Below are positions 27,752 to 51,275 of a stretch of 64,000 bases of DNA, in pieces. The stretch is from positions 3,100,001-3,164,000 of the forward strand of contig NZ_CP081862.1 in the NCBI RefSeq assembly GCF_019797765.1, read 5' to 3'. The stretch comes from Cellulomonas sp. C5510 (GTDB lineage: Bacteria; Actinomycetota; Actinomycetes; Actinomycetales; Cellulomonadaceae). The notes under the pieces are model-generated. The model did not search any database. It worked only from the letters and a program-made list of their open reading frames with translations, and was not told the origin of the DNA. A program made the position numbers and the translations under genes. Numbering within the stretch: position 1 is the first letter of the stretch; every line of letters begins with the position of its first letter.

Positions 27752-28387
27752 TCAGGGCGCCGGGACGGGCACGACCTGCGACAGCACGGCGATGGTCACC
27801 GCGAGGCCGGCCAGGACCGTCACGTCGGTGGCCCGGCTCCGCACCACCAGCGCGGCCGGCCCGCCGCGCACCACCCCCCGCACGACCGCGCAGCACGCGA
27901 GGAACGCCGCGAGCGCCAGGGCACCGACGGCGGTGCCGGCCACCACGGCGAGCGAGACGGACAGCACCACCGCGAGGGAGATGACCCACAGCGACCAGTT
28001 GCGGTCGGCGTCGAGCGAGGCCCGGGCGATCGCGCGCGGGTCGAGGGGCCGGCCGTCGGCGTCGAACCGCTCCTGCTCCGCGTGGTCGGGTGCACCGGGG
28101 CCGACCGGCGCGGCGTCCGGCGTCGGGACGGCGGGGACGGGCGACGTCCCCGCCGCGTGGTCCGGCGGCGCCCCGCCGGGGAGGGCGGGCCAGGTCCCGG
28201 GCCCGGTGGTGGTGCCGGGGCCGTCGGCGCCCGGGCCGACCGTCCCGGGAACGCCGGCGCCGGAGCTGCCCGCGCCGGAGCTGCCCGCGCCGGAGCTGCC
28301 CGCGCCGAGGGTGCCCGCCCCGTCCAGCGGGGGCCCTGCCGGGTCGTCGGACCCGGTGCCGCCGTCGCCGCGGGTCTCGCCGCTCAC
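27752..28387 (-). CDS. DUF3017-like membrane protein
   Basis: 211 residues. The first 120 residues are Gly/Pro/Ala-rich with three perfect 15-bp repeats encoding SGAGS near 28260-28306. The C-terminal 90 residues hold three hydrophobic helices (WVISLAVVLSVSLAVVAG, ALALAAFLACCAVVRGVV and VTVLAGLAVTIAVLSQVVPV), with LVVRSRATDV before the last, the pattern of actinobacterial DUF3017 proteins. Function unknown; relatives often accompany folD. ATG 28387 is followed by SGETRGDGG; AGGGAGCACC gives a plausible ribosome site. The family assignment is from pattern only. Confidence 0.6.
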   Translation of the reverse strand: MSGETRGDGGTGSDDPAGPPLDGAGTLGAGSSGAGSSGAGSSGAGVPGTVGPGADGPGTTTGPGTWPALPGGAPPDHAAGTSPVPAVPTPDAAPVGPGAPDHAEQERFDADGRPLDPRAIARASLDADRNWSLWVISLAVVLSVSLAVVAGTAVGALALAAFLACCAVVRGVVRGGPAALVVRSRATDVTVLAGLAVTIAVLSQVVPVPAP

Positions 28388-28473
28388 CTGGTGCTCCCTC
28401 CGGTGCGCGCACCGGGGGCGCGCCGGATCCCGAGCGTACCCGGGCCGTGCGACGCACCGGGAGCGGCCCCGGC

Positions 28474-28479
28474 TACGGT
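28474..28479 (+). promoter_or_regulatory. -10 hexamer TACGGT, leaderless start of FAD oxidoreductase
   Basis: TACGGT followed by 6 bases and GTG at 28486, no ribosome site. Fixes the start well downstream of the open frame's beginning. Confidence 0.55.
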
Positions 28480-28485
28480 GACGAC

Positions 28486-29811
28486 GTGCCCGTCTCCGAC
28501 CGTCCCGCCGCCGTCCCGCCGCACGAGGGGCCGCCGGCGCCCCCCGGTTCGGTCGTCGTCGTCGGGGCCGGCCTGGCCGGTGCGCGGACGGTGCTGGAGC
28601 TGCGGGCGCAGGGGTTCACCGGGCGGGTGACCGTGCTGGGGGCGGAGCCCGTCGCCCCGTACGACCGGCCCCCGCTGTCGAAGCACCTGCTGGACCGGCC
28701 CGCGCCCGCGTGGCTGGCGGACGAGCTCGGCGCGGACGCCCTGGAGCTCGCGGACGAGGTGCGGCTCGGCACGCCGGCGACGGGCCTGGACCTGACGGGA
28801 CCGGGGGTGGTCGTGCGGACCGCGGACGGCGGCGTGGCCGGGGACGCCGTCGTCGTCGCGACCGGCGCGGCAGCGGTGCGGCCGCCGGGCTGGGACGCGG
28901 CGCTCACCCTGCACACCGCGCGGGACGCCGAGCGGCTGCGGGCGGCGCTCGGGGTCGCCGTCCCCGCGTCGTCCGCGGCGCCGGCCGACGCGCGCGGCGT
29001 CCCCGCCGGGCGGCGGCTCGTCGTGGTCGGCGCCGGGTGGGTCGGTGCCGAGGTCGCGACCGTCGCCGCGGCGGCCGGGGCCGACGTCACCGTGGTCGAG
29101 GCCCGGCCCGAGCCGCTCGGCGCCGTGCTCGGTCCGCGGGTCGGCTCGCTGACCGCGCCCTGGTACGCGGCCGCGGGCGTGCGGCTGCGCGCCGGCGTCC
29201 CGGTCGCGGCCGTCGCCCCCGATGCCGTCACGCTGGCGGACGGCACCGTGCTGCCGGCGGACGCGGTGCTCGTGGCCGTCGGCGCGCGGCCCGCGACGGC
29301 CTGGCTCGGCGGGGCGCTGGCCACCGGGCCGGACGGCGCCGTGCCGGTCGACGAGCTCTACGCCCCGATCGGCGGCCCGGCGCGCGTCCGGGTGGTCGGC
29401 GACGCGGCGACGCGCCGCTCCGCCCGGCACGGCTGGGTGCCGGGCGGTCACTGGGACGCCGCGCTGCGCGGGCCGGCGGTCGCGGTGGCCGGCCTGCTCG
29501 GGCGGGAACCCGCCGAGCCGGACGTCGCGCCCTACGTGTTCTCGACGCAGCTCGGGCACGAGCTGGCGCTGCACGGCGTGCCCGGGGCGGCCGACGAGGT
29601 GCTGCTGCGCGGCGACCCAGCGGCGGCCGACGGCTGGTCCGCGCTGTGGTTCGAGCCCGGGACGGATCGGCTCACGGCCGTGTTCTGCGTCGACCGGCCG
29701 CGCGACGTCGGCGGGGCGCGCCGGCTGTTCTCGGGCGCGGTGCTGCCGGTGCTCGACCGCGGGCGGGCCGCGGACCCCGCCGTGCCGCTCGCCCGGGCGC
29801 TCGCGGGCTGA
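28486..29811 (+). CDS. FAD-dependent pyridine nucleotide-disulfide oxidoreductase (ferredoxin reductase type)
   Basis: 441 residues. Two Rossmann motifs: the FAD site VVVGAGLAGARTVLELRAQGF near residue 25 and the NAD(P)H site VVVGAGWVGAEVATVAAAAGADVTVVEA. The segment PYDRPPLSKHLL is diagnostic of the rhodocoxin/putidaredoxin reductase branch, as is VVGDAA before the C-terminal reductase domain. Likely passes electrons from NAD(P)H to a ferredoxin serving a P450 or oxygenase; no such partner is adjacent. Start inferred from the TACGGT hexamer. Confidence 0.88.
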   Translation: MPVSDRPAAVPPHEGPPAPPGSVVVVGAGLAGARTVLELRAQGFTGRVTVLGAEPVAPYDRPPLSKHLLDRPAPAWLADELGADALELADEVRLGTPATGLDLTGPGVVVRTADGGVAGDAVVVATGAAAVRPPGWDAALTLHTARDAERLRAALGVAVPASSAAPADARGVPAGRRLVVVGAGWVGAEVATVAAAAGADVTVVEARPEPLGAVLGPRVGSLTAPWYAAAGVRLRAGVPVAAVAPDAVTLADGTVLPADAVLVAVGARPATAWLGGALATGPDGAVPVDELYAPIGGPARVRVVGDAATRRSARHGWVPGGHWDAALRGPAVAVAGLLGREPAEPDVAPYVFSTQLGHELALHGVPGAADEVLLRGDPAAADGWSALWFEPGTDRLTAVFCVDRPRDVGGARRLFSGAVLPVLDRGRAADPAVPLARALAG

Positions 29812-29843
29812 CGGCGGCCGACCACGCCACGGCGGCGGCGCGG

Positions 29844-30863
29844 TCAGCCGGCCGGTGAGGCGCTCGGCGTGGGCGACGCGCTCGGCGACGGGCTCGGGGA
29901 CGCGCTCGCCTGGGCCGCCGCGGCGAGCTGCCCCGCCACCTCCGTGACGAACGCGCTCAGCGCCGCCGGGTCGTCGAGCGCCCCCGTGTACTCGCGCCCG
30001 CCGACCAGCAGCACCGGGCTGGTCGTCACGCTGCCCACGTCGAACGGGACGGAGTCCGCCGCCCGGTCGGTCGCCTCGCGCGCCCAGTCCGTGAAGTCGC
30101 CGGCGCGCACGCAGTCCGCCACGGCGTCGTCCCGGGCTCCGGCGTCCTGCACGAGCGCGACGAGCTCGTCGTCGTCCAGCCCGTCCGCGTCGAGCCCCGG
30201 CTGGGCGGTCAGCAGCGCCTGGTGCACGGCGAGCACCGCGTCGGGCTGCCCGTCCACGACGCAGGCGAGCGCCCCGGCGGCGCGCAGGGAGTAGTCGCCG
30301 GTGGTGGCGGTGGCCGACGGGGACGGCTCCGGGGACGCGGACGCGGACGGCGACGCCGAGGACGTGGGCGCCGCCACCGTGGTGCCGTCCAGCAGGGCGA
30401 GCGGGTGCACCTCCAGCGTGGCGTTCCCGGCCGTCACCCACTGCGCCAGCACCGACCCGTCCGCCTGCCAGAGCGCCGCGGCCTCCGGCGAGCGGTAGTC
30501 GACGTACAGGACGAGGTCGAGCACGCCGGACGTGCGGTCGACCGCCGTGGCCACCGGGGCACCGCCGGCGGGGATCCCGCCGGTCGAGACCGGAGAGACC
30601 GTGGAGCCGTCGCCGGCCAGCACCACGCCGTCGGACAGCATGCCGAGCGGCCCGACCTGCCCGGCGCGCACCGACGCCTGGACGAGCAGCACGGCGACGA
30701 CGCCCGCGGCGACCGCCCCGGTCCCCGCCCCGGCCCAGCCGAGCCGCCTGTTCCGGCGCCGGCGGCGCGCCTGCCGCTCCCGCTCGAGGCGGGCGAGCTC
30801 GCGGGCGAGCGCCTTGCGCTCCTTCTTGGGCAGCTTCTGCTGGTCGGCGGGGCGCGCGGTCAT
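29844..30863 (-). CDS. DsbA-like thioredoxin-fold membrane-anchored protein lacking the active-site cysteines
   Basis: 339 residues. A Lys/Arg-rich cytoplasmic N-terminus (residues 10-40), one membrane anchor (LGWAGAGTGAVAAGVVAVLLVQA), then an extracellular DsbA-type fold. Where DsbA/BdbD proteins have FxDFxCPxC, this one reads LYVDYRSPEAAALW, so no CxxC. The cis-proline region TTSPVLLVGGREYTGALDDP is kept. Ser/Pro/Ala-rich stretches interrupt the domain (about 165-190) and form the C-terminus. It therefore cannot be a classical thiol oxidoreductase; it may bind or scaffold a partner (inference). Starts downstream (3' side) of the mannosidase-operon terminator. Confidence 0.8.
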   Translation of the reverse strand: MTARPADQQKLPKKERKALARELARLERERQARRRRRNRRLGWAGAGTGAVAAGVVAVLLVQASVRAGQVGPLGMLSDGVVLAGDGSTVSPVSTGGIPAGGAPVATAVDRTSGVLDLVLYVDYRSPEAAALWQADGSVLAQWVTAGNATLEVHPLALLDGTTVAAPTSSASPSASASPEPSPSATATTGDYSLRAAGALACVVDGQPDAVLAVHQALLTAQPGLDADGLDDDELVALVQDAGARDDAVADCVRAGDFTDWAREATDRAADSVPFDVGSVTTSPVLLVGGREYTGALDDPAALSAFVTEVAGQLAAAAQASASPSPSPSASPTPSASPAG

Positions 30864-46160: not shown

Positions 46161-47345
46161 TCAGGCGGTCGCGGCCAGGCGGGCGGCCTCGGCCGCACCC
46201 CCGTCCATCGTCTCGGCCAGCGTGACGAGCGGGTGGGCCGCGTCCCTCAGGATGCGCCGGCCCGCGACCACGTTGTTGCCGTCGAGGCGCACGACGAGCG
46301 GCTTGGTGGCCTGGTCGCCCAGGATGCCCAGCGCCGCGACGATGCCGTTGGCGACCGCGTCGCACGCCGTGATGCCGCCGAACACGTTGACGAACACGGC
46401 CTTCACCTGCGGGTCCGACAGGATGATGTCGAGACCGGCCGCCATGACCTCCGCCGAGGCGCCGCCGCCGATGTCGAGGAAGTTCGCCGGCTTGACGCCG
46501 CCGTGCTCCCGGCCGGCGTACGCGACCACGTCCAGCGTGCTCATGACCAGACCGGCGCCGTTGCCGATGACGCCGACCTCGCCGTCGAGCTTCACGTAGT
46601 TGAGGTCCTTCGCCTTGGCCCTCGCCTCGAGCGGGTCCGCCGCGGCGGCGTCCTCGAGGGCCGCGTGGTCCTCGTGACGGAACTCCGCGTTGCCGTCGAG
46701 CGTGACCTTGCCGTCGAGCGCGACCACGTCGCCCGCCTCGGTCAGGACGAGCGGGTTCACCTCGACGAGCGTGGCGTCCTCCTCGCGGTAGACGTCCCAC
46801 AGCCGGGTCAGCACGGCGGCGACCTTCGGGGCCACCGCGGCGTCGAAGCCGGCGGCCGCGACGATCTCGTCGGCCTTCGCGGCGTCGATGCCGGTCCGCG
46901 GGTCCACCGGGACGCGCGCGAGCGCCTCCGGGCGCTCCACCGCGAGCTGCTCGATCTCCATGCCGCCCTCGACGCTCGCCATGGCGAGGTACCGGCGCTC
47001 GGCGCGGTCGAGCAGCAGGGAGAAGTAGTACTCCTCCGCGATGCTCGCGCCCGCGGCGACCATCACGCGGTGCACCGTGTGGCCCTTGATGTCCATGCCG
47101 AGGATCTCGGCGGCCCGCGCCTCGGCCTCGTCGGCGGAGCGGGCGATCTTCACGCCGCCGGCCTTGCCGCGGCCGCCGGTCTTCACCTGCGCCTTGACGA
47201 CGACCACGCCCGTGGCGCCCTCGGCGGCCAGCAGGGTCTCGGCCGCGGTCCGCGCCTCGGCGGGCGTCGTCGCGACGATCCCTCCCAGGACGGGTACCCC
47301 GTGCCGCTCGAACATGTCACGTGCCTGGTACTCGAACAGGTCCAC
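46161..47345 (-). CDS. sucC: Succinate-CoA ligase (ADP/GDP-forming) beta subunit
   Basis: 394 residues. ATP-grasp domain beginning [18 protein letters not shown], with [16 protein letters not shown] and the C-terminal [14 protein letters not shown] and [16 protein letters not shown] that bind the phosphate and CoA side. GTG start with GGAAGGA about 10 bases upstream. First gene of sucCD; an ACGT-centred palindrome lies 90 bases upstream. Confidence 0.97.
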
Positions 47346-47430
47346 CTGCTGCGGTCCTTCCGTCGCCCTGCGTCCCGTGGCGGGATCCGGCTGCTCTGCC
47401 GCGGACGATGGTAGCCCCGCGCCGGCGGTT

Positions 47431-47448
47431 TATCTCTACGTCGAGATA
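47431..47448. promoter_or_regulatory. Operator-like palindrome upstream of sucC
   Basis: TATCTCTACGTCGAGATA is symmetric at 16 of 18 bases around ACGT. It lies in the promoter region of sucC and shares the TCTCGACGT core with the site over the icd -10 (26370-26387). Confidence 0.55.
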
Positions 47449-47482
47449 TGTGACCCGGGTCGCAGGGGTCGCGACGGACGGC

Positions 47483-47498
47483 GTCAATCGCGGTTGAC
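47483..47498. promoter_or_regulatory. Operator A of the HTH/Clp_N operon
   Basis: GTCAATCGCGGTTGAC: arms GTCAA and TTGAC with a 6-base centre. The right arm is part of a TTGACA -35 (47494-47499). Confidence 0.7.
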
Positions 47499-47523
47499 AC
47501 CCGAGCGGCCCGTCAAGCATGGT
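47494..47523 (+). promoter_or_regulatory. Promoter of the HTH/Clp_N operon
   Basis: TTGACA (47494-47499), 18 bases, CATGGT (47518-47523), then 6 bases to the ATG at 47530: a leaderless start. The -10 lies inside operator B. Confidence 0.6.
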
Positions 47524-47527
47524 TGAC
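47512..47527. promoter_or_regulatory. Operator B of the HTH/Clp_N operon
   Basis: GTCAAGCATGGTTGAC, same GTCAA/TTGAC arms as operator A, 29 bp away, covering the -10 and ending two bases before the start codon. Confidence 0.7.
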
Positions 47528-47529
47528 AC

Positions 47530-47754
47530 ATGACCGAGGCCCCCGATCCCACCGGCGCTCTGGCCGACGCCACCGCCGCCGACCCGGCCGCCGGCCTGCG
47601 CGCCGTCCGGTCCCTGCGCGCGCTCGCCGACCGCCTCGAGACGCTGCAGGTGCTCCGGGCACGCGAGCTCGGCTGGTCGTGGCAGGACATCGCCGACGCC
47701 CTCGGCGTGAGCCGGCAAGCCGTGCACCAGAAGCACCACCGCCGGACCGCCTGA
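47530..47754 (+). CDS. Small HTH DNA-binding protein
   Basis: 74 residues. A single helix-turn-helix at the C-terminus (LGWSWQDIADALGVSRQAVHQKHHRR) with an acidic Ala-rich N-terminus and the amphipathic LRALADRLETLQVLRARE helix. Found next to a Clp N-domain protein (22 bases between genes), a pairing I know from other actinobacteria. It likely represses its own operon via the two GTCAA-N6-TTGAC sites. Confidence 0.85.
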   Translation: MTEAPDPTGALADATAADPAAGLRAVRSLRALADRLETLQVLRARELGWSWQDIADALGVSRQAVHQKHHRRTA

Positions 47755-47776
47755 CCCGCCCGACGAGGAGGACGAC

Positions 47777-48316
47777 ATGTTCGAGAGGTTCACCACCGGC
47801 GCGCGGCAGGCCGTCGTCGCCGCGCAGGAGGTCGCACGCGACCTCGGCGACCCGCAGATCTCCCCCGCGCACCTCGTCGTCGCGGTCGCGTCGGCCCCGG
47901 ACCCGGCCGCGGAGGCGCTCGCCGCGCACGGCGCGGACCGGCAGGCCCTGCTCGACCGGTTCGACACGGACGGGCTGGACGCCTCGGCGCTCGCCGCGCT
48001 CGGCATCGACCTCGAGGCCGTCCGGCGCCGGGCCGACGCCGTCTTCGGCGCCGGCGCCCTGGAGCGCGCCGGCCGCCGGCACCACGCCCCGTCCGGGCAC
48101 GTCCCGTTCACGCGGGACGCGAAGAAGACGCTCGAGGTCGCGCTGCGGGAGGCCGTCCGGCTGGGGCACCGCCGCATCGAGGCCGGGCACGTCCTGCTCG
48201 CGGTCATCCGGCTGCACGGGACCGACGGGCACCTCCTGCTGCTCCGGTGCGGGGTCGACCCCGCCGCGCTCGCCGCCGACGTCACCGCACGCCTGGCGGA
48301 CGGCGCCGCGGCCTGA
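47777..48316 (+). CDS. Clp N-terminal domain protein without ATPase
   Basis: 179 residues with two Clp_N repeats: FTTGARQAVVAAQEVARDLGDPQISPAHLVVAV (residues 4-60) and FTRDAKKTLEVALREAVRLGHRRIEAGHVLLAVI (110-170). These four-helix repeats are the substrate and adaptor docking domain of ClpA/ClpC; no Walker motifs follow, so it is a free-standing N-domain that might modulate ClpC or bind substrates. ATG 47777 follows GAGGAGGA. Confidence 0.88.
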   Translation: MFERFTTGARQAVVAAQEVARDLGDPQISPAHLVVAVASAPDPAAEALAAHGADRQALLDRFDTDGLDASALAALGIDLEAVRRRADAVFGAGALERAGRRHHAPSGHVPFTRDAKKTLEVALREAVRLGHRRIEAGHVLLAVIRLHGTDGHLLLLRCGVDPAALAADVTARLADGAAA

Positions 48317-48405
48317 CGCGTCCCCGGGCGGGTGACGCGTCACCGCACGTCATCCGCCCGCGTCGGCTAGCGTGCCCTCGGACGTCGAGACACCCCGGGG
48401 GCGAG

Positions 48406-49101
48406 ATGACTTCGATCGACGAGACGCTGGCGCGGCTGCGCCGGGCGGCGGACTCGACCGCCGCGACGCTGGCGGCGGTGCGCGCCGCGGCGCCGGAGGA
48501 GACCACCGCGACCGACGACAGCGGTGCCGTCGCGGTCGCCGTGGACCGGCGCGGGCGCCCCGTGGGCGTGCGCGTCGCGGACGACTGGAACCGGCGCACG
48601 ACGCCGGAGGAGCTGGGCCGCGCGGTGCTCGCCGCGGCCGGGGCCGCCTCCGCCGACCTGGGCCGCGCGATGTCCGAGGCGCTGCGCGGCGGCGCCGCCC
48701 GGGCGTCCGACGCGCTGCCCGTCGAGCCGGTGGCCGTGCCCGTGTTCGAGGGCACGCCGCGGCCGCTCGCCGACCTGGCCGAGCTCGCCGTCGCGCAGCT
48801 CGACGGCGCCGCGACCGCGCAGCCCGCGACGCCCGCCACCGCGACCGGCTCGGCCGGCGCGCACGTGGCCGTCACGCTCGCCGACGCCGGGCTCGTCGGC
48901 TGCGACGTGGACGGCCGGTGGGCGGCGACGCAGTCCGGGGTCGCGCTGTCGACCGCGGTCAACCAGGCGCTCGGCGAGGCGGCGCGGGCACTGGCCGCCC
49001 TCGACCAGCGCCGGCAGGAGCAGGACACCGTGCTGGCGGAGGCGTTCGCGCACCTGCGTGCCCTCGCACCGGCCCCCGCCGACGGGGAGGCGCGGGCATG
49101 A
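48406..49101 (+). CDS. YbaB/EbfC-like protein with a second, similar domain
   Basis: 231 residues. Residues 1-95 look like the YbaB/EbfC nucleoid-associated fold seen in actinobacterial type VII secretion loci: a helix, then GAVAVAVDRRGRPVGVRVADDW, then a long helix (PEELGRAVLAAAGAASADLGRAMSEAL). Residues 150-205 repeat the pattern (AHVAVTLADAGLVGCDVDGRW, then ALSTAVNQALGEAARALAAL). First gene of four overlapping or closely spaced genes. ATG 48406 is preceded by GGGGGCGAG. Family by pattern, not by search. Confidence 0.6.
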   Translation: MTSIDETLARLRRAADSTAATLAAVRAAAPEETTATDDSGAVAVAVDRRGRPVGVRVADDWNRRTTPEELGRAVLAAAGAASADLGRAMSEALRGGAARASDALPVEPVAVPVFEGTPRPLADLAELAVAQLDGAATAQPATPATATGSAGAHVAVTLADAGLVGCDVDGRWAATQSGVALSTAVNQALGEAARALAALDQRRQEQDTVLAEAFAHLRALAPAPADGEARA

Positions 49102-49397
49102 GCGAGATCGACGTCGTCACGAGCGCGCTGCGCTCGGAGGCGCAGACGTGGGACGGGGAGGCCGACGCCATCGGGCAGGTCGCCGCGTCCGTCGAGGGGC
49201 TGCGGCTGAACTACCTGACCGCCGGCATCTTCGCCCTCGTGGTGGCCGACCACGAGGCCGCGGTGGACCAGGTCGCCGCGCGGTGCCGCGAGGGGGCGAC
49301 CGCCATGCGCGACATCGCCACCGCGCTGCGCGCCAACGCCCAGGCCTACGAGGACCGCGATGCCGACGTCGCCGACCACGTCGACGGCGCGTACTGA
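49098..49397 (+). CDS. Type VII secretion-associated small protein (EspC/DUF2580-like)
   Basis: 99 residues, all-helical. Contains WDG at residues 18-20 (WXG-like) and, near the C-terminus, YEDRD (Tyr84-Asp88), which fits the YxxxD export signal of type VII substrates. The helix-turn-helix hairpin pattern with AANAQAYEDRDADVADHV-type ending (actual LRANAQAYEDRDADV) resembles EspC/DUF2580 proteins. ATG overlaps the upstream stop (ATGA). Probably a secretion partner or effector chaperone; no ESX core genes are in the window. Confidence 0.7.
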   Translation: MSEIDVVTSALRSEAQTWDGEADAIGQVAASVEGLRLNYLTAGIFALVVADHEAAVDQVAARCREGATAMRDIATALRANAQAYEDRDADVADHVDGAY

Positions 49398-49409
49398 CGA
49401 GGGGGACGG

Positions 49410-50147
49410 ATGAGCGACTTCAGCACGGCCACGTTCCAGGCCACCATCGAGGGCCTGCAGACCGGGCTCTCCGACCTGTCCGGGCAGCTCGCGCGCGTCG
49501 GCCCGGCCGTCCGCTCCGCCACGTCGGTCCCGCTGATGCCCGACTGGGTCAAGGACGGGCTGGTGTGGTGCGGCGAGAAGCTGCTGGAGATCGGGCAGGC
49601 GGTGCTCGACAAGATCGGCGAGCTGCTGCTCGGGGCGGCCGCACCCGTGGCGTTCTTCTTCCGCGCGTCCGACTGGCACGAGAACGTCGGCGGGCCGGCG
49701 TCGGGCGTGGCGGCGTCGGTCAACCCGAACGCGCTGCGCGCCACCCGCGACTGGACCGGTGACGCGGCGACGTCCTACTCCCGCTCGGTCGCCGGGCAGA
49801 CGACGGCCGCCGCCGCGATCCAGGGCGTCTCCTCCAGCATGGCGACGTCGATGGTCACGTGCGCGGTCGCCGGCCTCGCGTTCTACGTCGCGATCGGCGT
49901 CATCCTCGTCAAGCTCATCGTCGCGACGATCGCGGCCATCGCGGCGCTCGGCTCCGTGGTGTTCTCCTGGGCGGGCGTCGGCATCATCATCGAGGAGGCC
50001 GCCGTGAACACCGGGCTCATCGTCGCCGCCGTGACCACCCTCGTCGCCGTGCTCGGCGCGCAGGGCAACGCGATCGTGCAGATCAAGGGCGCGGTGTCGT
50101 CCGGCGCCGCGTTCCCGGGCGGCGCGTGGCCGGAGGGCGCCGCGTGA
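49410..50147 (+). CDS. WXG-containing protein with hydrophobic C-terminal half
   Basis: 245 residues. The N-terminal 30 residues form a helix (TATFQATIEGLQTGLSDLSGQL), followed by a hydrophobic stretch around 53-85, a WTG motif at 115-117 followed by DAATSYSRSVAGQTTAAAAIQ, and three membrane-type helices (147-165, 167-188, 203-218). The W-x-G-x-A-A-x-x-Y pattern recalls type VII secretion substrates or pore-forming partners. Twelve bases after the EspC-like gene. ATG 49410 has GAGGGGGA. No toxin motif is visible. Confidence 0.6.
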   Translation: MSDFSTATFQATIEGLQTGLSDLSGQLARVGPAVRSATSVPLMPDWVKDGLVWCGEKLLEIGQAVLDKIGELLLGAAAPVAFFFRASDWHENVGGPASGVAASVNPNALRATRDWTGDAATSYSRSVAGQTTAAAAIQGVSSSMATSMVTCAVAGLAFYVAIGVILVKLIVATIAAIAALGSVVFSWAGVGIIIEEAAVNTGLIVAAVTTLVAVLGAQGNAIVQIKGAVSSGAAFPGGAWPEGAA

Positions 50148-50563
50148 CCGGGCCGTCCGGCGCGCCCGGCGTCCCGGACCCGCGGGGTCCGCTGTCCCCC
50201 GGGGCGCAGGAGCGTCGCCGGCGCACGGCGCTCGGCGTGATCGGCGGTGTCGCCGCCGTGGTACTGCTCGCGATCGCCTGGGCCCTCGGGCGCAGCGTCG
50301 GTGCCGGCGCGGTCGTCGTGCTGCTCGGGCTGGTCGTCGTGATCGGAGCCCTGGCCGCGCTCCTCATCGGGTCGGACCGCCGGCGGCGCGCCGCGACCGC
50401 GCCCGCCGACCCGACGCTGCGCGCCACCCCGGCGCTCGACCTCGACCGGGTGCGGGCGCAGCACGCGCAGGGCGGCACGGCCGCGGCGGTCCGCGAGGTC
50501 CGGCGCCAGGCGCCCTGGCTGAGCCTCGCGGAGGCCGCCGCGGTGGTGGAGCGGCTCGGCTGA
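50144..50563 (+). CDS. Two-helix membrane protein with L7/L12-like C-terminal helix-turn-helix
   Basis: 139 residues: a Pro-rich start, two membrane helices (LGVIGGVAAVVLLAIAWALG and AVVVLLGLVVVIGALAALLIG), then a cytoplasmic tail VRAQHAQGGTAAAVREVRRQAPWLSLAEAAAVVERLG. The tail matches the pattern of the ribosomal L7/L12 C-terminal domain (GKIxAIKxVRExTGxxLxEAK), found in various small actinobacterial proteins. The GTG overlaps the upstream stop (GTGA). Last gene of the type VII-like operon. Confidence 0.62.
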   Translation: MTGPSGAPGVPDPRGPLSPGAQERRRRTALGVIGGVAAVVLLAIAWALGRSVGAGAVVVLLGLVVVIGALAALLIGSDRRRRAATAPADPTLRATPALDLDRVRAQHAQGGTAAAVREVRRQAPWLSLAEAAAVVERLG

Positions 50564-50564
50564 C

Positions 50565-50590
50565 GGCGGGCCGGCCCGGGTCGGCCCGCC
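50565..50590. terminator. Hairpin terminator between convergent genes
   Basis: GGCGGGCCG (50565-50573) pairs with CGGCCCGCC (50582-50590), loop of eight bases, right after the stop of the type VII-like operon and before the AIM24 stop. Confidence 0.6.
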
Positions 50591-50609
50591 CGGGCCGGGC
50601 GGGCCGGGT

Positions 50610-51275
50610 TCAGGCCGTCGGGACCGGGTAGCCCTCCGACGGCTGCACGACCACGAAGCCCGGGCCGTGGAACGCGTACTGGAACGCCTCGCCGGTGCCG
50701 CCGCGCAGCATCGACGTCATGTTCATGCTCGACACGACCCCGGGCGTGAGGTTCGCGGACCAGCACACCGCCGCGTTCGGGTCCACGTACGTCGGCTGCT
50801 GCGAGCAGTCGAGCACCATCGGCTGCCCGTGCGAGGTGAGCGCGACGGTGCCCTGCCCCTGGATCAGCGTGTTGAAGAGGCCGGCGGTCATCATCCCGGC
50901 GCCCTTGGTGCGGTGCATGTCCCATTGCAGGGCGGCGTCGAACGCGAGCAGCGACGCCCCGCCGACGCTGATCGCGTCGCCCTCGAGCTGCAGCAGGAAC
51001 ACGTGCTCGGCGGCGCGCGCGAAGAACACCTCCCCGGGACCGGACACCCGCATGAGCGCCTGGTCGTCGGAGCTGACGGCGCGCTTCACGAACCGGGCGA
51101 GCGACCCGGACGACTCGTGGTGGAACTGCACCTGGCCCTGGTGGGCGACCATCGCGCCCTTAGCGGCGAGCACGTCCGGTCCGAGGGTGACCTTGAGCAT
51201 CTTGTCGCTCTGCAGGACGAAGCGGTCGGCGGACTGGACCTCGGTGTGGGCCTGGTCGAAGAGGGGGCTGCGCAT
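50610..51275 (-). CDS. AIM24 family protein
   Basis: 221 residues. AIM24/TIGR00266-type beta-sandwich: SDKMLKVTLGPDVLAAKGAMVAHQGQVQFHHE and ALMRVSGPGEVFFARAAEHVFLLQLEGDAISV, GTVALTSHGQPMVLD. Function unknown in bacteria; yeast AIM24 is mitochondrial. ATG 51275 is six bases after CATGAT, possibly leaderless. Convergent with the type VII-like operon. Confidence 0.82.
   Translation of the reverse strand: MRSPLFDQAHTEVQSADRFVLQSDKMLKVTLGPDVLAAKGAMVAHQGQVQFHHESSGSLARFVKRAVSSDDQALMRVSGPGEVFFARAAEHVFLLQLEGDAISVGGASLLAFDAALQWDMHRTKGAGMMTAGLFNTLIQGQGTVALTSHGQPMVLDCSQQPTYVDPNAAVCWSANLTPGVVSSMNMTSMLRGGTGEAFQYAFHGPGFVVVQPSEGYPVPTA

What the first reader, a model, noticed from the sequence alone, without database searches (positions are those of the whole stretch)
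48406..50563. Orphan four-gene operon of type VII secretion-like proteins
Seen: four coupled genes (ATGA overlap, 12-base gap, GTGA overlap): a YbaB-like protein, a 99-residue helical protein with WDG and YEDRD, a WXG-containing protein with a hydrophobic half, and a two-helix membrane protein with an L7/L12-like tail. Known: EspC-like proteins and YbaB-like proteins occur in ESX loci, and YxxxD is an export signal. No EccC, EccB, mycosin or toxin gene is present. Inferred: a satellite effector or membrane-complex module exported by an ESX machine encoded elsewhere.
Basis: partly seen in the sequence, partly recalled or inferred. Interest (0 to 1): 0.72.

Follow-up and report, generated by a model that had tools for sequence, protein, structure and literature searches.

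The report
Satellite type VII secretion cargo operon
Four neighbouring genes in a non-mycobacterial actinobacterium look like a detachable cargo kit (a likely pair of export proteins, their likely helper and a membrane protein) for a protein-export machine encoded elsewhere in the same genome, resembling a kit known from mycobacteria.

Summary
In detail: four tightly coupled genes at 48406-50563. A (231 aa) is a tandem YbaB-like protein, B (99 aa) an EspC-family protein (Pfam E 1.3e-9, over cut-off) ending in YxxxD, C (245 aa) a WxG protein with a hydrophobic half, D (139 aa) a small membrane protein. It is not orphaned at genome level: 2.7 Mb away lies an ESX locus (EccB, EccC, EccD, mycosin, WXG100 pair) that itself carries a paralogous A'-B'-C' cassette. 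Profiles built only from satellite copies recover B and C in 11 of 11 other cassettes and A in 8 of 11, with no other hit among 265 proteins. All 10 genus members with C carry EccC (41 of 81 do overall). Best reading: B and C form an EspC/EspA-like heterodimeric ESX substrate (YxxxD on one partner, WxG on the other), A is its dedicated YbaB-fold chaperone (as proposed for EspD/EspH in mycobacteria), D an optional membrane partner; an espACD-like satellite outside mycobacteria. Secretion, B-C pairing and chaperone action are inferred, not shown. The L7/L12 tail and 'WDG' as a WXG turn were not confirmed; C misses the EspA/EspE cut-off.

The parts
48406..49101 (+). gene A: 231-aa tandem YbaB-like protein, proposed dedicated chaperone
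   Evidence: PF02575 in 12 of 12 aligned homologues at E <= 1; only PDB profile hit at E <= 1 is a YbaB-family protein, 5yrx, E 1.5e-4; top Foldseek hit of a low-confidence model is YbaB 1j8b, TMt 0.80, E 6.4e-3
48493..48720 (+). A, first YbaB-like half (residues 30-105)
   Evidence: N- versus C-half hhalign E 2.3e-9, probability 96; Pfam match residues 28-94
48823..49050 (+). A, second YbaB-like half (residues 140-215)
   Evidence: PDB profile match at profile positions 133-208
49098..49397 (+). gene B: 99-aa EspC-family protein
   Evidence: PF10824 E 1.3e-9, over cut-off; 12 of 16 homologues match at E <= 1
49347..49361 (+). YEDRD, YxxxD/E motif of B
   Evidence: Y and [DE] in 16 of 16 aligned; background 21 of 436
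49410..50147 (+). gene C: 245-aa WxG protein with hydrophobic half, proposed EspA-like partner of B
   Evidence: alignment; weak EspA_EspE match in 9 of 16 at E <= 1, best 0.0021, below cut-off; dN/dS 0.06
49752..49760 (+). WTG, W-x-G turn of C (W115-x-G117-x-A119-x-x-x-Y123)
   Evidence: W115 and Y123 invariant in 16 of 16; G in 13 of 16
49839..50078 (+). hydrophobic, membrane-type stretch of C (residues 144-223)
   Evidence: hydropathy; mean pairwise identity among satellite C proteins 0.69 for residues 151-200 and 0.52 for 201-235
50144..50563 (+). gene D: 139-aa membrane protein (hydrophobic residues 26-79)
   Evidence: hydropathy; among the 8 other satellite copies a homologue only in G057, G058 and G021, the other five having the next gene within 100 bp or overlapping
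50435..50560 (+). C-terminal tail of D, the part matched in the G021 homologue (67% over 37 residues)
   Evidence: no Pfam family

Best explanation
The operon is an accessory substrate cassette for the genome's own ESX (type VIIa) secretion system, built like the mycobacterial espACD satellite. B (EspC-like, YxxxD) and C (WxG helical protein with a membrane-type half) pair as a heterodimer that presents a bipartite export signal to EccC. A, a tandem YbaB-fold protein, holds the aggregation-prone C-B pair in the cytosol until export. After export, C's hydrophobic helices probably act at a membrane or the cell wall. D, when present, is a small integral membrane partner or anchor. Shown here: gene structure, family relations, recurrence of A-B-C order, a paralogous cassette inside the ESX locus, co-occurrence with EccC. 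Inferred: B-C pairing, chaperone action of A, secretion, and the roles of C and D.
For: ESX locus in the same genome: EccC 759 bits against a cut-off of 347, which no control genome passes (0 of 14); EccD, EccB, S8 mycosin and a WXG100 pair. Paralogous A'-B'-C' in the same order inside that locus. Profiles from satellite copies alone, against 265 proteins of other loci, hit at E <= 0.01 only B and C of 11 of 11 other cassettes and A of 8 of 11; second-type profiles against 221 proteins likewise hit only cassette genes. In G267, another family of the order, a cassette lies on the EccC contig about 27 kb from EccC. EccC in 10 of 10 genus genomes with C (41 of 81 overall, Fisher 6e-4) and in 10 of 10 class genomes with a B hit (114 of 296, Fisher 5.6e-5). 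YxxxD/E in 16 of 16 B; WxG turn in C. A is YbaB-like. Passages read: EspH is predicted YbaB-like and binds EspE; its homologue EspD stabilises EspA/EspC and is encoded more than 260 kb from ESX-1 (PMC6107294); EspL has a predicted YbaB-type domain and co-precipitates with EspD; the bipartite WXG + YxxxD/E signal is stated (PMC6319747).
Against: C does not pass the EspA/EspE cut-off (best E 0.0021), and an ordinary WXG100 protein of this genome also hits that model (E 0.00088), so C's match may reflect only the WXG turn. The EspC model is not wholly ESX-specific: it rings in 3 of 14 control genomes, over the cut-off in 1. A matched only YbaB in Pfam at E <= 1; no direct comparison with EspD/EspH was made. 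Gene order differs from espA-espC-espD. A was not found in the G019 satellite copy. The 11 other cassettes were mostly found through P0002/P0003, so recovery of B and C is partly by selection. Of 8 further loci brought in by A (L084-L091), 2 show B and C; of 7 further loci brought in by B (L094-L100), 0 show A and 1 a weak C (gene calls failed in part). Of 32 class genomes with an A hit, 6 lack EccC. Counts are not corrected for relatedness.
Confidence: 0.7

Rival explanations
1. Toxin and immunity: C is a membrane-damaging toxin exported with B, and D (GTGA-coupled, membrane-bound) is its immunity protein, in the manner of TspA/TsaI of Staphylococcus.
For: C has a hydrophobic half. A small protein, hydrophobic by eye, follows C in 5 of 5 type II cassettes read, 3 of 3 type III cassettes and in G267, with unlike sequences. 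D has sub-cut-off hits to a holin family (E 0.017) and to the SdpC toxin family (E 0.27). TspA depolarises membranes and is neutralised by TsaI (abstract in the listing, PMC9484751).
Against: In satellite copies D is absent in 5 of 9 while C is kept; neither G329 cassette has such a gene right after C. C shows no hypervariable end: mean pairwise identity 0.69 for residues 151-200, 0.52 for 201-235, 0.66 for 236-245, against 0.42 for 1-45 (7 satellite copies; near-identical G058 dropped, G057 not aligned), and dN/dS is 0.06. No toxin family over cut-off for C or D.
Confidence: 0.13
2. A is a YbaB/EbfC-type DNA-binding regulator of the operon, not a chaperone.
For: Pfam names the family DNA-binding; A and A' are the only YbaB-family hits in the genome at E <= 0.1, so one might serve as a nucleoid protein.
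Against: A-type genes sit directly before B-C pairs in satellite and other cassettes. For EspH the authors tested transcription and proposed chaperone action, with EspH binding EspE; loss of EspL deregulated only whiB6 (passages of PMC6107294 and PMC6319747).
Confidence: 0.1
3. The proteins form a structural envelope or membrane accessory complex of ESX rather than exported cargo.
For: Hydrophobic parts of C and D; a cassette inside the ESX locus in G000 and G058.
Against: 31 of 41 genus genomes with EccC lack C at E <= 1e-3, so the core machine does not need it. The YxxxD/E motif is kept in 16 of 16 aligned B proteins.
Confidence: 0.15

Closest known systems
espA-espC-espD satellite operon of Mycobacterium (with its ESX-1-locus paralogues espE/espF/espH)
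   Same: unlinked from its ESX locus; EspC-family protein; WxG partner; YbaB-like helper; a paralogous set inside the ESX locus (passages)
   Different: gene order; C below the EspA/EspE cut-off; A is a tandem YbaB and matched only the YbaB model in Pfam; extra membrane gene D; the host is a Micrococcales actinobacterium (title of the record with a 98%-identical C), recalled to lack a mycomembrane
YbaB/EbfC family (PF02575)
   Same: sequence profile and, tentatively, fold
   Different: two copies in one chain; lies with T7SS-type genes; P0001 misses the curated cut-off
WXG100 / EsxA-EsxB pairs (PF06013)
   Same: size of B; WxG and YxxxD motifs split over two partners
   Different: C is 245 aa with a hydrophobic half; B matches EspC, not WXG100, over cut-off
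EspL (YbaB-like component of mycobacterial ESX-1)
   Same: YbaB-type domain linked to Esp substrate stability (PMC6319747 passages)
   Different: EspL is 115 aa and sits in the ESX-1 cluster; A is a duplicated domain in a satellite operon

Membership tests
EspC family (PF10824), for B | score over the curated cut-off | tested here: met
   38.8 bits against 23.5, E 1.3e-9; 12 of 16 homologues match at E <= 1; the model rings in 3 of 14 control genomes, over cut-off in 1
EspC family (PF10824), for B | C-terminal YxxxD/E export motif | tested here: met
   16 of 16 aligned B proteins
EspA/EspE family (PF18879), for C | score over the curated cut-off | tested here: not met
   10.6 bits against 27 for P0003; best of 16 E 0.0021; a plain WXG100 protein scores E 0.00088
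EspA/EspE family (PF18879), for C | WxG turn, hydrophobic segment, encoded next to an EspC-type protein | tested here: met
YbaB/EbfC (PF02575), for A | score over the curated cut-off | tested here: not met
   21.1 against 25.5 bits for P0001
YbaB/EbfC (PF02575), for A | YbaB fold | tested here: inconclusive
   top PDB match is YbaB 1j8b, TMt 0.80, E 6.4e-3, but mean pLDDT is 55, no match reaches E 0.001, and 10 of the top 20 are mitoribosome chains; profile hit to 5yrx E 1.5e-4
EspD/EspH chaperones, for A | sequence family membership | tested here: inconclusive
   only PF02575 reported at E <= 1 for P0001; no direct comparison with EspD or EspH was made
EspD/EspH chaperones, for A | stabilises its cognate EspC/EspA-type pair | not testable with these tools
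   needs expression or deletion
ESX (T7SS) substrate cassette | genome encodes an EccC machine | tested here: met
   10 of 10 carriers in the genus
ESX (T7SS) substrate cassette | EccC-dependent secretion | not testable with these tools
   needs secretome of an eccC deletion
T7SS polymorphic toxin-immunity locus | variable C-terminal toxin domain | tested here: not met
   no hypervariable end in C, dN/dS 0.06
T7SS polymorphic toxin-immunity locus | immunity gene always present | tested here: not met
   D in 4 of 9 satellite copies

The most novel reading that the evidence does not exclude
YbaB-EspC-EspA-like cassettes are an old, portable cargo kit of actinobacterial ESX systems, of which mycobacterial espACD/espEFH is one late, host-adapted descendant; tandem YbaB proteins are a general class of T7SS substrate chaperones, so a fold named for DNA binding was widely reused for secretion, also in cells that have no mycomembrane.
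Probability: 0.4. Interest if true: 0.68.

Novelty: new variant of a known kind. Interest (0 to 1): 0.52.

Why it matters
In the papers seen here the EspA/EspC/EspD module is studied as a virulence device of mycobacteria, with its exact job unsettled. A family of simple cassettes in a non-mycobacterial genus, some inside the ESX locus and some moved away, would give varied material to test the B-C heterodimer, the YbaB-chaperone idea and the bipartite export signal, and would argue that the module's basic role does not depend on a mycomembrane or on mycobacterial virulence.

Tried and rejected
AF2 for C: mean pLDDT 43, not searched further. P0001 against A' by plain BLASTP is weak (E 0.026); A-A' homology rests on profiles (satellite-only profile hits A' at E 7.7e-9). 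The type III first gene is YbaB-like by Pfam (3 of 3 at E <= 1, best 1.7e-4), but the satellite profile does not reach it at E 0.01 and profile-profile similarity is modest (E 9.6e-4). L7/L12 tail of D: not found. Promoter and terminator scan of 47300-50700: no promoter-like site, one terminator-like site inside C, uninformative. PDB profile searches for B gave mostly WXG100 proteins and designed helices, for C no meaningful relative. An EccC-subtype association (10 of 10 carriers among 22 genomes with the high-scoring subtype, p 3e-7) was defined after seeing the data and is not relied on. A third weak C hit in G021 (E 4e-4) was not followed.

In print: ten searches held 3, 1, 19, 129 (20 listed), 3, 9, 1, 3, 3 and 1 papers; no listed title or start of abstract describes such cassettes outside mycobacteria. 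Only passages of PMC6107294 and PMC6319747 were read; all others were seen as listings. Only open-licence papers are held.

Full report
WHAT IS THERE. The window lies at 3,100,001-3,164,000 of contig C1 of a two-contig, 4.15-Mb high-GC genome. A record carrying a 98%-identical C is titled Micrococcales; the genus is unnamed. Comparison with the near relative G058 shows purifying selection on all four, strongest on C (dN/dS 0.06; sucC 0.02).

THE PROTEINS. B passes the Pfam EspC cut-off (38.8 against 23.5 bits, E 1.3e-9), a model that also rings in 3 of 14 control genomes, over the cut-off in 1. Its tyrosine 84 is invariant and starts a YxxxD/E in 16 of 16 aligned homologues; such a motif in the last 35 residues occurs in 21 of 436 other called proteins of 80-1000 aa, and in 17 of 56 of 80-130 aa, a group that includes EsxA/B-type proteins. 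A is built of two YbaB-like halves: N- against C-half hhalign E 2.3e-9. Pfam YbaB matches 12 of 12 homologues at E <= 1, best 4.1e-9, though P0001 itself misses the cut-off (21.1 against 25.5). The one PDB profile hit at E <= 1 is 5yrx, a nucleoid-associated protein, E 1.5e-4, on the second half. A weak AF2 model (pLDDT 55) shows helix, three strands, helices twice; its top PDB match is YbaB (1j8b, TMt 0.80, E 6.4e-3), no match reaches E 0.001, and 10 of the top 20 are mitoribosome chains. C has invariant W115 and Y123 around a W-x-G turn (G in 13 of 16) and a hydrophobic stretch. Its match to EspA/EspE is below cut-off (9 of 16 at E <= 1, best 0.0021), and a plain WXG100 protein of the ESX locus matches that model too (0.00088), so C is called EspA-like by architecture and position only. 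D is a membrane protein with no family over cut-off.

NOT ORPHAN AT GENOME LEVEL. The same genome holds an ESX locus at C1:439.7-460.4 kb, 2.7 Mb away: EccC (759 bits, cut-off 347), EccD, EccB, an S8 mycosin, two further S8 proteases and a WXG100 pair; EccE and EccA were not sought. Inside it lies a cassette A' (449699-450442), B' (449371-449682), C' (448658-449359) on the minus strand, followed by a membrane-type protein unlike D. Genome-wide, C finds C' at E 7e-7 and B finds B' at E 1.6e-6. A and A' are the only two YbaB-family hits in the genome at E <= 0.1, both below cut-off.

A RECURRING CASSETTE. In the genus (81 genomes) C occurs in 10 at E <= 1e-3. Nine carry the satellite type near sucC: B and C in 9 of 9, A in 8 of 9, D in 4 of 9. 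Further cassettes: a second type inside the ESX locus of G000 and G058, away from EccC in G021, G008 and G019, and on a short contig in G057 (B and C hits only; not read further); a third type with an added gene that looks like WXG100 (not scanned) in G008, G020 and G031. Outside the genus: G267, another family of the order, on the EccC contig about 27 kb from EccC and next to genes that look like EccB and mycosin; two in G329; and G125 and G367. Most of these loci were chosen by their B or C, so B-C adjacency is partly by selection; A was not selected for, except in G125 and G367. Profiles from satellite copies only, run on 265 proteins from the other loci, hit at E <= 0.01 only the matching cassette genes: B 11 of 11, C 11 of 11, A 8 of 11 (the three misses are type III, whose first gene is YbaB-like by Pfam, 3 of 3). 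Second-type profiles against 221 proteins likewise hit only cassette genes. Against this: of 8 further loci brought in by A (L084-L091) 2 show B and C, and of 7 further loci brought in by B (L094-L100) 0 show A and 1 a weak C, with gene calls failing in part.

CO-OCCURRENCE. EccC over the family cut-off is found in 41 of 81 genus genomes and in 10 of 10 with C (Fisher 6e-4). In a class sample of 296, EccC is in 114, in 10 of 10 with a B hit (5.6e-5), 3 of 3 with a C hit (0.056) and 26 of 32 with an A hit (2e-7; six lack it). These counts ignore relatedness, and the class searches scored only 4-16 candidates per genome, so absences are soft.

ACCESSORY, GAINED OR LOST. Of 30 sucC loci fetched, 4 carry the cassette and 26 show no cassette hit within about 1.5 kb. 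In nine of the 26 the ClpN-like gene is followed by aim24 with 6-253 bases between, against 2,293 bases holding A-D in the window. 31 of 41 EccC genomes of the genus lack C, so the cassette is optional, not core machinery.

MECHANISM. Passages of two papers supply the model: ESX-1 substrates as heterodimers with WXG on one partner and YxxxD/E on the other; EspD, a homologue of the predicted YbaB-like EspH, stabilises EspA/EspC; EspH binds EspE; EspL has a predicted YbaB-type domain and co-precipitates with EspD; espACD lies more than 260 kb from ESX-1 (PMC6107294; PMC6319747). The window operon has the same roles in one gene string: B (YxxxD) plus C (WxG) as substrate pair, A as dedicated chaperone, D as optional membrane partner. 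Shown: relations, order, co-occurrence. Inferred: pairing, chaperoning, export, and what C does outside. The toxin-immunity rival is weakened by the lack of a hypervariable end in C and by D's absence in 5 of 9 copies, but not excluded.

VERDICT. Observation confirmed; interpretation supported with corrections. A new variant of a known kind: an espACD-like satellite outside mycobacteria, with a tandem-YbaB chaperone candidate and an added membrane gene.

Noticed in passing
G000:C1:451930-454845 (L029:6930-9845): Two adjacent S8 proteases of 441 aa with near-identical ends lie in the ESX locus besides the mycosin at 459254-460417; the neighbouring genes at 450456 and 453255 share an N-terminal segment. 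This looks like a recent tandem duplication.
   Followed up: partly
47530-48316: An HTH protein and a stand-alone Clp_N-domain protein (no ATPase domain found) form a pair beside sucC in 15 of 30 fetched sucC loci, with or without the cassette.
   Followed up: partly
G000 whole genome: No conventional YbaB/EbfC nucleoid protein was found at E <= 0.1; the only two hits are A and A'.
   Followed up: partly
L066:6845-9385, L068:7047-9387, L069:7527-9976: Third cassette type with a leading WXG100-looking gene, then YbaB-like, EspC-like, C-like and a small hydrophobic protein; no EccC in the stretch fetched.
   Followed up: partly
G267:C21 about 57-80 kb (L079-L080): Repeated blocks of WXG-type genes and protease-like genes, and a further 387-aa C-like protein (profile E 3e-5) near the EccC gene.
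   Followed up: no
28001-30000: GC content rises to 82.6% against 74.7% and 77.2% in the neighbouring 2-kb stretches.
   Followed up: no
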